A DNA stretch of 64,000 nt from Linnemannia hyalina (lineage: Eukaryota > Mortierellomycota > Mortierellomycetes > Mortierellales > Mortierellaceae): assembly GCA_019671135.1 (NCBI GenBank), contig JAHRHY010000026.1, positions 558,001-622,000 of the forward strand. The letters are read 5' to 3'. Shown here piece by piece: positions 14,334 to 21,234 of this stretch; within the stretch, counting starts at the first letter, position 1, and every line of letters starts with the position of its first letter. Position numbers and translations under genes: made by a program. The notes below the pieces were generated by a model. The model saw nothing but the letters and a program-made list of their open reading frames with translations, was not told where the DNA came from and ran no database searches.

Positions 14334-14576
14334 TGTTAGTTGCGGTCCATGGAGATTGAAAACGAAATAAAGAACGATTGAGCATAAGAACAGCAGTGCC
14401 CAGGTGGGCGCTTTTAGGGTTTTTTTTTCATCCGTAAACGCAATGGGCGCGAGAATTACGTCACCGAAGTGAGTAAATCGCTCTCTTTCAAGTATACCAT
14501 TGCTGGTTTGTTCCCCACTCCTTCCCTTCCAGTACCCAGCACTTGTTCTCTTGCCGTTTGACTAGCACCTTTGAGT

Positions 14577-17347: not shown

Positions 17348-17915
17348 GCGGCGGCAGCGAGCAATGGCCTCTCTCAGACTCAGTGGTGACTATGCCGCGG
17401 AAGGACAGCGTGAGAGAGCCTGAATTCCGCTCTGGATAATCCTTCTGGGGTCAAGCTGACACCGCACTCAAGGAGGACCAATCCAGTGGCGCTTATCTGG
17501 CTCAACTCTGTACCATATTCCTCTTCTGTCCGCAGCGCGTCCAGCTCAGGACAGGTGATATCGCAATCTATAGTGAGCACAGCACCGCTGTTCTTGCAGG
17601 GTGCAACAAGACGAAGGTACGTTGAATGTTTTTTGTGAAGGGGGAAGAGGCGAGTGAACGAGTGAGGAGGTGAACGAGAGAGGGAGACTAGTGCTTTTTA
17701 GACGAACATTTAATAAAGGGTGAGTTAGGAGCTACTGAGCTATCTACGTGTTGGTTAGGAATTTATACGTGTGAGTGAATGCCAGATAGTTGCCGTGTTG
17801 AGCTTCTAGAGGTTTCCATGAGGCGTAGCTCGGATAAGTAATCAAAGGAAAGAAAAGTCTAGAAATGTTGGTGGCGTCATAGGTTTGTATAACCTTATCA
17901 GAGTGGATCTCTGAC
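17348..17915. other. Spacer between LTR and gypsy fragment
   Basis: No convincing coding sequence. Purine-rich gag/gaacg words occur at 17640-17700. It may be non-coding leader of a deleted element. Confidence 0.3.
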
Positions 17916-18675
17916 ATGTCTCGCCCCGTCTCCGTCCACACTGATGCTTCCAAGTTCGCCATTGGCGCTGTCCTCATGCAGGATGGTCGACCAGTAGCAT
18001 TCATAACCCGCAAGTTTTCATCCGCCGAAATCAACTATCCTATTCACGAAAAAGAACAATTAGCCGTCGTCCATGCACTACTTAAATGGCGTGCCTACCT
18101 TCACTCCACCGCAGAACCGTTCACTGTCTACACCGATCACGAGTTCCTTAAGTACCTCAATACCAAGAATACACTCAGTCCGCGACAGATCCGTTGGATG
18201 GGGAAACTTGCCGAATAAAATTTCGACATCCAGTACTGCAAAGGCTCCCCCAACGTGGTTCCCGACGCGCTGTCCCGACGTCCCGATTACCAACTCTCCG
18301 CCATTGTCGAGTCGATTCCGTCCGTTGGTACCGATTTTATAACCCTATGCAAGCAAGCAATTGCCAAGGATGAGTACTTCAAAAACATCTTTGAGCGTGC
18401 ATTCAAGATCACCGATGCCAATGACCCATTCGAGTTCCAAGTCAAGAATGGCCTCCTGTATCTCAAGAAAGGTGCCAGAGTCTGCATCCCTGACTTACTA
18501 GCCGTCAAGACCCAGTTAATGTCCGAAATCCATGATTGCCCTATTTCAGGTCATAATGGAGTTGACAAGACATACGCCCGCCTATCGGAACTCTGCTACT
18601 GGCCCGTTATGTTCCGTTCCGTGAAGCACTACGTCGAATCCTGTCACGTTTGCAAGACCTCTAAAACAAGAACCA
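17916..18675 (+). pseudogene. Ty3/gypsy pol fragment: RNase H and start of integrase
   Basis: The translation shows [16 protein letters not shown], the first RNase H motif of gypsy elements, then [11 protein letters not shown] and the SPNVVPDALSRR tether. Next comes the integrase H2C2 zinc finger (H...H...CHVCK, about 18540-18660). One in-frame TAA at about 18216 interrupts it. The reverse transcriptase on the left and the integrase catalytic core on the right are missing. On the right, homology stops near 18670, where a minus-strand gene fragment starts, so the two truncated genes meet tail to tail. Confidence 0.85.
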
Positions 18676-18689
18676 GCTGTTGCCTCCTG

Positions 18690-20132
18690 ACAAGATATGA
18701 CGATACCCTCCATACACGAACCCCCGGTCGCTTTCTCCTTGCCCTTGCCTTCCTCCTTCAGATCCTTGGGCAAATGGGCAAACCCCCCGACCACACAGGC
18801 TTGTCCGCCATCCAAGGTAACGATCTTCATGTCGTCTATGTTCTTCCCTGGCCACAGCTTGTCGATGTTGTCCTTGCAAGTTATGACGTTGCGGATCTCG
18901 GGGAGATAATAGTCGGACCCAGCAACAGTTGTAGTCAACCTTGGAGGGAGATCGTCCTCGGGTAATCGCCTGAACCGCGCGTCCCGACGTTCTCGAAGTT
19001 TGAAGGCCAAGATCTGCACTCGGAATCCGTCCGTCCTTATTGATCCATGGGGTATGTAGCCTTTCTGGTGGTAGTCCTTGGGTTTGGTCTGCTCGACAAA
19101 CTGAAGGTGATCCCGAATCCCACTCAAGGACCGAAGATTGATCGCTGCGCGGTGTCCAGTTTTGCGCTTCTGTCGGTTCGACAGGCCGGTGGGATCGATG
19201 TCGCAGACAAAGTGCTTGATTATAAATCCGGGCTCCTTTCCACCGATCCAAGTTTCAAGGTCATTTGTGGATGTGATAGTTGTGGGGTCGTCCTGGTCCA
19301 ATGAAGCCAAGTCCACCAACCTCTGCTTCAACAAGTCTCGCTTCCAAAAGAAAAGAGCCAGGTCCCTCTCTGAAAAGGTTACAAATCCCTGTTGTGACGA
19401 AGTAATGGGAACGATCTTCCACCTGTTTGAGATCATTTCGTTGAGGGCGATATAGTATTCCGCTGCTGATATGTCTTCTTGGATCGTAAAGTCGATATAA
19501 GCTTCAACCCTCCCCTTGTCCTTCATGGCGCTGACCTACAATAAAAAAGTTTAGCATCAGTTACATGTTTGTTTGTAGCGATGACCTTCAGTGGCGTAAT
19601 AGTCAAAGGGAATCGTATCTTTACCATATCGTATAAAGCCTCCCAATTCAAGGGATTCCTTGCTCAGGCGCAATCGAGACCAGATTGCCTTCCAGTCCTG
19701 ACCACTAGCAATTTTTGCCTCGGTCCACTCAAGCTCGTTTTTCCCCAGGAGCAGCTTGGACCTTGCCTGCGCCGAATCTGCATGGTTGTGACACCAGTCA
19801 TACTCCACCTCCACAACATCACAAGAAGCGAGCTTTCTCATTCTGATTTGCGCAGGACAGGCGTTGTCCACAGACTCTCGACCGATGCCCAACTCTTTTC
19901 GAGGACCATGTCGTCTGCAACAGGATCGAAAGCTCCAATCGTACTTCTTTGGTGCACCCCGAGCACCAGGGACTGCTTTGAACACTGAAAGCTCCGTCTC
20001 CATGCTCTCATTGTCAGTTTTTATGTCTCGAGAACCTCCTTCCGACCTGTATTCAAACTGCACGGACACTCGTTCATTGTACCAGAATGATCTAAACAGA
20101 AGAAAATCAGGGCCATCAGGACGCTTGGTCAT
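18690..20132 (-). pseudogene. FAR1-like zinc cluster joined to Fanzor/TnpB-like RuvC start; truncated
   Basis: The minus-strand gene starts at ATG 20132. The first exon, to about 19600, encodes a C-C...H-H cluster (SCCRRHGPR, then ACPAQIRMRK and WCHNHAD). It resembles the FAR1/WRKY-GCM1 DNA-binding module of Mutator-like transposases. A small intron ending TTGTAG at about 19536 leads to a second exon (ATG-equivalent near 19526). This has SIRTDGFRVQILAFK and, about 70 residues later, MKIVTLDGGQACVVGGF. A TDG-type segment followed by a hydrophobic-Asp-Gly motif is what I expect at the first RuvC motif of Fanzor/TnpB proteins. The assignment rests on remembered family patterns and is not proven. 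Homology ends near 18690 at a junction with gypsy sequence, so the later RuvC and zinc-ribbon motifs are absent. The donor of the intron is not consensus. Confidence 0.5.
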
Positions 20133-20191
20133 CAAAAACCAAGCGAATTCTAACCTCTCATTATTTTTGCAATGTTGCAGATGTTCAAAAG

Positions 20192-21019
20192 TTGGTCCAG
20201 CAGTATTTGGTCCATCCAGATGTTGTCTGTAAGAATCCTAGTGCTACGCACTTCCAAGCAGCTATGAAGGTGTTTGTTCACAGGACGTTCTCGGCTCGAG
20301 ACTCCACCATGGCACCACAAACGCCCGGTCAAGAATCAACGGCTCAGGACGGCGCCCAACAATGCAGGACCCTCAATGACGTCTTTGAGAGGCTGGAAGC
20401 TCTTCGCCTGCACCTGCGCGAGAGCAAGAAAAGGTAAAAAATGAATATTGTTTTGTGATATCTAAATTATGAAAATAGACTTTCTGTCAATCTAATATAC
20501 AATTTTTTGTGACAACCTTCTAGCACCAATGATGTTGGCCAAGCAGAGGAGCCTAGGGATGCTTTCAACCGTTACGATACTGTCGATCACCCTCCGGAAC
20601 GTCGCCCTCGTTCTCATGGTTCTGGAAGACCTTACAAGTACCGTTGACGATATGCCATCAAAACCCGCTCTCAGCTAAAGAAGCATGACCCTCCAGAGAC
20701 CATGAAACAGCACCAGCTGAAGCCATGGAAGTCGCCACCAGAGTCCCCACTGGATCCATCGATCAACACCACACCGCCCAAGGTCACTCCCAAAAAACCA
20801 CCGCGGGAGGTGAAGACAATGGACAAAAAGGAACTAGTCGATGCAATGCAATGGGATCATCCTACACGGACACTTTACATCGGTACCATTAACGCCAATG
20901 CTACTCGAGCTCTGAACGGGGGAATCGACCAGGCAGACGCATATACCTATTTCTCAGCAATCAAACAGTCGCTTCGAAACGTTATCCGGATTTCGTCACG
21001 CGTAAAGCGAACCGCTTAA
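20192..21019 (+). CDS. Hypothetical protein, two exons, divergent from the FAR1/RuvC-like gene
   Basis: A frame open from about 20170 contains QQYLVHPDVVCKNPSATHF and a helical FERLEALRLHLRESKKR. Donor GTAAAA at about 20437 and acceptor TTCTAG at about 20523 lead into NDVGQAEEPRDAFNRYD. A stop near 20648 interrupts that frame, after which a third open part (20702-21019) has MDKKELVDAMQWDHPTRTLY. It is transcribed away from the gene at 20132 with almost no spacer, so both may derive from one mobile element. No known domain is recognised, and start and frame continuity are uncertain. Confidence 0.3.
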
Positions 21020-21234
21020 CGCGCTATTGGCCAATACATTAGGTGTCGTCAAACTATGGCCAGATCCAAAATTAATCCGCCGCTCGTTTGCGCATTTGAT
21101 ATTTTCCTGTCAACTGCGCAGGCCTTCTAATACGAAAATGCGAACGCACAAACCTACGACCCTTGACATATTTCGCAAACACAAGGCGCGCGTTTGGCAG
21201 TGGCAGCGGCAGAAATCGTCATACGAGGAAAAAA

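What the first reader, a model, noticed from the sequence alone, without database searches (positions are those of the whole stretch)
18690..20132. FAR1-type zinc cluster fused to a Fanzor/TnpB-like RuvC start
The first exon has a CC...C...HxH cluster like Mutator transposase FAR1 domains. The second has a TDG segment followed by a hydrophobic-Asp-Gly-Gly motif, as expected before and at the first RuvC motif of Fanzor (eukaryotic TnpB) proteins. A Fanzor carried in or fused with a Mutator-type protein would be an RNA-guided nuclease candidate in a mobile element. This copy is truncated, so full-length relatives must exist elsewhere if it is right. The call rests on pattern memory.
Basis: partly seen in the sequence, partly recalled or inferred. 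Interest (0 to 1): 0.8.

Follow-up and report, generated by a model that had tools for sequence, protein, structure and literature searches.

The report
Flap nuclease fused to Fanzor
The window holds dead scraps of a fungal jumping gene whose complete relatives encode one protein that joins a DNA-flap-trimming nuclease to an RNA-guided DNA cutter (Fanzor), a pairing not found in the papers searched.

Summary
On the minus strand, 18651-19535 is part of one exon of a Fanzor-type gene (TDG, RuvC-I). 19643-20148 is a FAR1-like first exon of a Mutator-type (MULE) transposase. They match different loci, and 20177-21040 (+) is a third remnant. None of 177 fetched proteins carries the FAR1-like part. 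The genome matches Linnemannia hyalina.

Best reading: an RNA-guided cutter that also processes the 5' ends it makes, favouring repair that recopies the element. The fusion is well supported; the mechanism is inferred. New variant of a known kind (Fanzor1 in MuDR-type elements).

The parts
18651..19535 (-). Fragment of exon 4 of a clade-A XPG-Fanzor gene: TDG (19023-19040) and RuvC-I LDGGQ (within 18789-18821); open frame, cut off before RuvC-II/III and the zinc ribbon
   Evidence: (56% aa to L019 model residues 744-1029, E 5e-94)
19536..19591 (-). 3' part of the gene's intron 3 with its AG acceptor; similarity to other copies continues to 19591
   Evidence: 69.7% DNA identity to L009 over 18766-19591
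19643..20148 (-). FAR1-like zinc-cluster first exon of a MULE-type transposase (CC 19908-19928, C 19848-19865, HNH 19782-19796); no further transposase sequence was identified in the window
   Evidence: (94.9% to L015:3559-4063)
20177..21040 (+). Remnant of exons 2-3 (linker region) of a C1-type XPG-Fanzor gene, head-to-head with the FAR1-like exon; XPG exon 1 not found
   Evidence: 43% aa to L050 model residues 273-529, E 1.4e-57
17883..18665 (+). Retrotransposon pol remnant (RNase H, H2C2 integrase zinc domain; Ty3/gypsy type by recall) abutting the Fanzor fragment
14440..14462 (-). Isolated right-end-like sequence of the same element superfamily; not assignable to the fragments above
   Evidence: 1 mismatch to the right-end pattern

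Best explanation
The window contains dead fragments of MULE-type DNA transposons of a Mortierellaceae fungus. Full-length members encode a two-nuclease fusion protein of about 1,300 residues (1,295, 1,335 and 1,348 in three modelled copies). It has an N-terminal Exo1/FEN1/XPG-type 5' structure-specific nuclease, a linker, and a Fanzor1-type RNA-guided nuclease. The C1 and C8 elements also hold a divergent FAR1-like/MULE/SWIM transposase gene. In the 4.8-kb C13 element no other gene was recognised by eye, so it is presumably moved in trans.

Proposed mechanism (inferred): a transcript from the element's right end, with the right inverted repeat folded into a hairpin, serves as scaffold and the flanking DNA as guide. 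The Fanzor part then cuts the empty site left by excision, or an allele without the element. RuvC cuts of this class leave 5' overhangs (recalled). The attached 5' nuclease trims or resects those 5' ends, steering repair away from simple end joining and towards copying the element back from the sister or homologue.

Shown here: the fusion as a gene architecture, both folds, conserved catalytic residues, third-codon-position bias in both parts, element ends and the right-end hairpin. Inferred: expression, guide RNA, cleavage, and coupling of the two activities.
For: Fusion: GT-AG models with five exons and the same intron phases (1, 2, 0, 0) in three divergent copies; the C4 model equals the deposited protein P0005 letter for letter over 1,335 residues. 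Of 85 homologues 62 carry both domains by our HMMs; of all 177 fetched proteins 66 do, with XPG first in 66 of 66. Of 34 clade-A XPG loci that I listed, 27 have a same-strand Fanzor hit 0.5-6 kb downstream.

Active sites: positions matching FEN1 D34, D86, K93, R100, E158, E160 (here D), D179, D181, D233 (numbering recalled; D34 placed by pattern) are kept in 30/31, 39/40, 39/40, 38/41, 45/46, 45/46, 40/46, 47/47 and 46/47 rows with a letter, of 50. Fanzor RuvC-I D 50/50, alternative Glu 37/43, RuvC-III D 41/43.

Element: 9-bp duplications GACATTGGG (7,959 bp) and ATTTGCATG (4,788 bp), ATCGCGTGG by eye; MULE and SWIM domains. Right-end hairpin: z -3.2 to -5.6 in all 6 right ends folded with shuffles. 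Selection: third-position share 0.52-0.66 in all comparisons above 10% divergence, 4 XPG and 12 Fanzor pairs. Ten clade-B copies, query included, at 98-100% over 5 kb.
Against: No transcript, protein or activity data. The window's own copy is dead; no XPG exon or zinc ribbon was found in it. 23 of 85 homologues did not show both parts. Pfam XPG_I stays below its curated cut-off for the genome exons scanned (at most 22.9 against 24.9 bits). Only 4 of 50 clade-A rows have the DPG form of RuvC-I reported for Fanzors, and 6 of 43 lack the alternative Glu. The FEN1 E158 position reads Q in both clade-B genes looked at (L058, L059). Seven of 15 well-supported XPG tree splits conflict with a supported Fanzor split, so halves have probably been exchanged between copies. 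RNAalifold found only 5 non-covarying pairs, and one of six left-type ends also folds well (z -3.3). Close copies do not all show the codon bias. The cut-and-resect step has no direct evidence.
Confidence: 0.6

Rival explanations
1. The XPG half serves the transposition reaction itself. It trims 5' flaps or branched intermediates at MULE excision or insertion sites, while the Fanzor half acts independently as an empty-site cutter.
For: The fusion sits in elements with MULE-type ends and, in C1, a MULE transposase; FEN1/Exo1/XPG enzymes act on branched DNA (general knowledge).
Against: MULEs are generally described without such a nuclease (general knowledge). The fusion is kept with Fanzor rather than with the transposase: in the 4.8-kb C13 element no transposase was recognised (by eye).
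Confidence: 0.25
2. The XPG half is a structural or DNA-binding adaptor whose catalysis is dispensable, as in inactive members of the XPG/Rad2 family.
For: In both clade-B genes looked at the position matching FEN1 E158 reads Q; some XPG/Rad2 family proteins are non-catalytic (recalled).
Against: In clade A all seven metal-site acidic positions plus the K93 and R100 equivalents at +7 and +14 are kept in 87-100% of rows with a letter, and the four diverged XPG comparisons show third-position bias.
Confidence: 0.12
3. Artefact: two adjacent genes of the element, an XPG-like gene and a Fanzor gene, wrongly merged by gene prediction.
For: Some deposited models are split: P0128 (XPG part) and P0052 lie on the same L. 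hyalina contig with neighbouring locus numbers. 23 of 85 homologues did not show both parts.
Against: Intron phases agree in three diverged copies, two of the four introns splitting codons (sites were partly chosen by homology). One model equals a deposited protein exactly. The intron before the zinc ribbon sits at the matching place in clade B by eye. Many species' deposited models are fused.
Confidence: 0.05
4. One reading: FAR1 zinc cluster and Fanzor form one real chimeric gene in this window.
For: Both open frames lie on the minus strand in the right order, with a splice acceptor before the Fanzor part.
Against: They match different loci at different identities (95% to C9, 70% to C44) with a junction at 19592-19642. 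FAR1-like and Fanzor genes are divergent and separate in C1. 0 of 177 fetched proteins carry the FAR1-like part. The fragment has no RuvC-II, RuvC-III or ribbon.
Confidence: 0.03

Closest known systems
Fanzor1 in MuDR-type elements of Mucoromycota (Bao and Jurka 2013, PMC3627910; passages seen)
   Same: Fanzor1 with D-x(125,275)-[TS][TS]xx-C4-x(5,50)-RD motif, carried by MuDR-like elements with inverted repeats and 9-bp duplications in early-diverging fungi
   Different: Those elements (ROr-4, PBl-3, MCi-4) are reported without MuDR transposase, and neither 'XPG' nor 'Mortierell' occurs in the main text; here Fanzor is fused to an Exo1/FEN1/XPG nuclease and some elements carry a MULE transposase
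SpuFz1, GtFz1 and PpFz1 (solved Fanzors; PMC10432273 and PMC11423790, passages seen)
   Same: Fanzor fold over model residues 445-1122; catalytic Glu between the last RuvC strand and the TNB
   Different: Most Fz1 proteins are given as 600-700 residues and no N-terminal nuclease is described in the passages seen; ours are about 1,300. RuvC-I is mostly DLG, DGG or DAG in clade A
Exo1 / FEN1 / XPG-Rad2 5' nucleases
   Same: Fold over residues 2-297, seven acidic metal-site positions, K93 and R100 equivalents
   Different: Host enzymes are separate repair proteins (general knowledge); here the domain is part of a transposon-borne Fanzor
TnpB/Fanzor right-end RNAs (Yoon et al. 2023, PMC10711439; passages seen)
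   Same: Conserved structured right end. That paper predicts TIR and TSD inside the Fanzor1 RNA scaffold and a stem in place of the pseudoknot, which fits the right-end hairpin here
   Different: No expression data here; no Rfam family matched there

Membership tests
Fanzor1 | RuvC D-E-D site with Glu in the alternative place next to the zinc ribbon | tested here: met
   D 50/50, alternative E 37/43, RuvC-III D 41/43; no Glu at the RuvC-II strand in nearly all rows; clade B VDEYLTSTMC
Fanzor1 | C4 zinc ribbon (TNB) | tested here: met
   Pfam PF07282 E 4.5e-13 and 7.1e-11 in clade B, both above the curated cut-off
Fanzor1 | TDG motif in WED | tested here: met
   T 47, D 44, G 48 of 50 rows; present in the window
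Fanzor1 | DPG form of RuvC-I | tested here: inconclusive
   4 of 50 clade-A rows; GIDPGE in the clade-B genes L058 and L059
Fanzor1 | Fanzor fold | tested here: met
Fanzor1 | Guide RNA from the right end and RNA-guided cleavage | not testable with these tools
   Only a conserved hairpin; no RNA data
Exo1/FEN1/XPG 5' nuclease | Fold and catalytic residues | tested here: met
Exo1/FEN1/XPG 5' nuclease | Pfam XPG_I above curated cut-off | tested here: inconclusive
   Genome exons at most 22.9 against 24.9 bits; precomputed PF00867 on P0002, P0004, P0031, P0038, P0075 and P0084
MULE (Mutator-like) element | Inverted repeats and 9-bp duplication | tested here: met
   C1 and C13 elements, C8 by eye
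MULE (Mutator-like) element | MULE transposase with SWIM finger | tested here: met
   Concatenated C1 pieces: MULE E 8.6e-5 (23.3 bits, below the cut-off of 27.6), SWIM 5.9e-4 (19.7 bits, cut-off 19.6); gene not fully modelled
FAR1 domain | Pfam FAR1 match | tested here: not met
   0 families at E up to 10 for the window exon and none of FAR1 type for the C1 transposase pieces; 'FAR1-like' rests on the CC..C..HxH pattern and its place at the N-terminus of a MULE transposase
FAR1-Fanzor fusion | Both in one protein in homologues | tested here: not met
   0 of 177 at E up to 1e-3 with an HMM of four FAR1-like peptides

The most novel reading that the evidence does not exclude
A natural 'cut-and-resect' machine: an RNA-guided nuclease that carries its own Exo1/FEN1-type 5' nuclease in one chain. 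It cuts empty sites and processes the ends so that repair copies the transposon back. It is spread through the family Mortierellaceae and has multiplied recently in at least one clade.
Probability: 0.4. Interest if true: 0.93.

Novelty: new variant of a known kind. Interest (0 to 1): 0.8.

Why it matters
Fanzors are the eukaryotic RNA-guided nucleases, and what they do for transposons is an open question. A conserved fusion to a 5' nuclease points to end processing after the cut, and so to repair-templated retention of the element. It gives a testable handle: inactivate one nuclease at a time. It would also be a natural precedent for the engineered idea of joining a programmable nuclease to an end-resecting enzyme (recalled, not looked up). 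The near-identical clade-B copies suggest a recently active system in a culturable soil fungus.

Tried and rejected
FAR1-Fanzor fusion: rejected. Pfam on the window exons alone: no family. RNAalifold on 18 right ends: 5 pairs, no covariation. A named structure on 14 right ends did better: 77.0% of cells paired against 72.0% shuffled (0/500 as high) and 35-57% when slid; 19 double changes against 7.6. That structure came from one of the rows, so it leans towards itself. Rfam on four loci: one sub-threshold match, not at a right end. Viral contigs: none. Relatives outside Mortierellaceae: every hit that carries an organism name is from a Mortierellaceae-type genus (placement recalled except Linnemannia); unnamed metagenome hits could not be placed. 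That search needs shared 5-residue words, so absence elsewhere is not shown. Trees of the two halves of 33 proteins are only partly congruent (Mantel r 0.51, 0 of 2000 permutations as high; 10 of 30 splits shared; 7 of 15 supported XPG splits conflict). TSD search: a strict filter found nothing. With the filter on end lengths and end similarity dropped, 2,110 end pairs at 121 offsets (about one chance hit expected) gave two elements; C1's right end is also fixed by the shared end of copies, C13's by its matching repeats. Structural families not listed are not excluded.

Literature: nine searches, Fanzor+Mortierella (12), Fanzor (14; 82 papers, 40 listed), Fanzor+XPG (32), Fanzor+flap endonuclease (75), Fanzor/exonuclease/fusion/fungi (76; 960 matched, 20 listed), Mortierell+TnpB (87), Fanzor/PIN domain/FEN1/Exo1/Rad2 (88; 1,196 matched, 10 listed), Mortierell+transposon+XPG (89) and RNA-guided/HERMES/Fanzor (109; 101 matched, 10 listed), showed no report of this fusion in what was listed. 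Passages seen in PMC11071296 ('Fanzor flap endonuclease homologs' is a passing phrase about viral genes), PMC6338049 and PMC12719977 (both terms only in its references) do not describe it. Jiang et al. 2023 (recalled, Science Advances) is not held, so prior mention cannot be excluded.

Full report
What was checked. The two minus-strand frames exist: FAR1-like 19557-20237 and Fanzor-like 18582-19535. The window lies on contig C19 of a 51.5-Mb, 50-contig genome.

Window anatomy. DNA and protein comparison with element copies splits the locus into pieces with different closest relatives. 18651-19591 (-) is part of exon 4 plus part of intron 3 of a clade-A gene (69-70% DNA identity to C44, C47 and C48 copies). 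19643-20148 (-) is a FAR1-like exon (94.9% to C9). 20177-21040 (+) is an exon 2-3 remnant of a C1-type gene (43% aa). A retrotransposon pol fragment (17883-18665 +; RNase H 2.4e-33, H2C2 2e-17) abuts the Fanzor piece. So the apparent FAR1-Fanzor gene is a junction of fragments, and the copy is dead.

Full-length genes. One search found 110 pieces of the Fanzor part (68 loci when collapsed by hand). Three diverged copies gave five-exon models: C13 (L019, 1,348 residues), C4 (L051, 1,335) and C1 (L050, 1,295), all with intron phases 1, 2, 0, 0; the C4 model is identical to the deposited protein P0005. Each starts with an XPG/FEN1-like region (MG..., DG....EK......R, E-A-D, DSD, NDY) and ends with RuvC-I, the alternative Glu, a C4 ribbon and RuvC-III; Pfam finds the ribbon in other copies (L009 4.5e-13, L013 7.9e-13). 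The XPG exon query gave 100 rows. From these I listed 34 clade-A loci, leaving out second pieces of the same locus, weak rows and the clade-B rows; 27 of the 34 have a same-strand Fanzor match 0.5-6 kb downstream.

Other genomes. One search returned 85 proteins; those named are from Mortierellaceae-type fungi (Mortierella, Linnemannia, Podila, Haplosporangium, Dissophora, Entomortierella, Benniella, Actinomortierella, Gryganskiella). Own HMMs place both domains in 62 of 85; over all 177 fetched proteins, 113 have XPG, 129 Fanzor and 66 both, XPG first in 66 of 66; 33 are near complete in both. A stricter regular-expression test on the 85 found all listed motifs of both nucleases in 17 and the XPG motifs in 31. 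Deposited names include 'hypothetical protein', 'XPG-I domain-containing', 'Cas12f1-like TNB domain-containing', 'transposase' and 'Rad2 nuclease', so each half has been flagged by databases.

Selection. In all comparisons above 10% divergence (4 XPG, 12 Fanzor pairs, several sharing a copy), 0.52-0.66 of changes fall at third codon positions; one third is expected without selection. Closer pairs vary: the C13 copy against the decayed C48 copy gives 0.31 (XPG) and 0.43 (Fanzor), L051 against L009 0.40, and pairs with few changes scatter from 0.43 to 0.75. BLAST alignment favours conserved stretches.

Elements. The C1 copy is 7,959 bp with duplication GACATTGGG; the C13 copy is 4,788 bp with ATTTGCATG; C8 has ATCGCGTGG by eye. 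Ends share a core close to GGACAATGGGCGC. C1 carries a divergent transposase: FAR1-like N-terminus, DDE-type motifs read by eye, MULE 8.6e-5 (below cut-off) and SWIM 5.9e-4. In the C13 element no gene other than the fusion was recognised by eye. This extends Bao and Jurka's report of Fanzor1 in MuDR-like elements lacking the transposase.

Right end. In the 15 of 23 right ends where a stop codon could be placed, 78-161 nt lie between it and the repeat core, and this stretch is recognisably conserved across subfamilies. All six right ends folded with shuffles fold better than nearly all of them (z -3.2 to -5.6; 0 or 1 of 200 as low), into a long hairpin whose 3' arm is the inverted repeat. Of six left-type ends five do not (z -1.2 to +0.5) and one does (-3.3). 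Pair counting on 14 rows gives modest covariation support; RNAalifold did not. Yoon et al. predict TIR and TSD inside the Fanzor1 scaffold (passages), which fits.

Second clade. The XPG query also hit families at 26-35% identity. Two representatives, L058 and L059, are again XPG followed by Fanzor. The L059 gene has TDG, DPG, VDEYLTSTMC..C4 and HRD (TNB 7.1e-11) and Q at the E158 position, as L058 has. Ten copies, the query included, are 98-100% identical over 5 kb, which implies recent multiplication. Further copies at about 59% and 33% identity to the Fanzor part lie at many loci, many with an XPG match about 2 kb upstream by position (compare; not counted systematically).

Interpretation. 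What it is: a transposon-borne Exo1/FEN1/XPG-Fanzor1 fusion (near certain as a gene architecture; joint transcript untested). How it works: RNA-guided cutting of the empty site followed by 5'-end processing by the fused nuclease (inference, about 0.4-0.5). Rivals are a role in transposition itself, a non-catalytic adaptor, and annotation artefact. Novelty: no report in what nine searches of the held library listed; one paper looked for is not held.

Noticed in passing
L059+L060 (G000:C4:812501-820100), L058 (G000:C1:939001-945500): A second, divergent XPG-Fanzor clade with the DPG form of RuvC-I; ten copies (query included) at 98-100% identity over 5 kb, apparently recently mobile.
   Followed up: partly
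P0045, P0056, P0021: Deposited models named 'Elongation of fatty acids protein 2' and 'subunit of tubulin prefoldin' contain Fanzor sequence: probably host genes merged with neighbouring elements in annotation.
   Followed up: no
XPG and Fanzor domain trees of 33 proteins: Seven of 15 supported XPG splits conflict with a supported Fanzor split, suggesting exchange of halves between copies.
   Followed up: partly
L017:3803-8382 (G000:C25): By eye, a helicase/replication-type gene set resembling a Helitron lies next to the FAR1-like exon and XPG-Fanzor copy on C25.
   Followed up: no
window 14440-14462 (-): A right-end-like sequence of the same element superfamily without an identifiable gene next to it.
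   Followed up: partly
L050:7480-7579: The C1-type right end carries two tandem UUCG hairpins (CTTCGGTGACGTAGTT twice), unlike the single hairpin of the other right ends folded.
   Followed up: partly
L051:5950-6015: Two right-repeat-like ends (GGCGCCCATTCTCC and GCACCCATTGTTC) lie next to each other.
   Followed up: no
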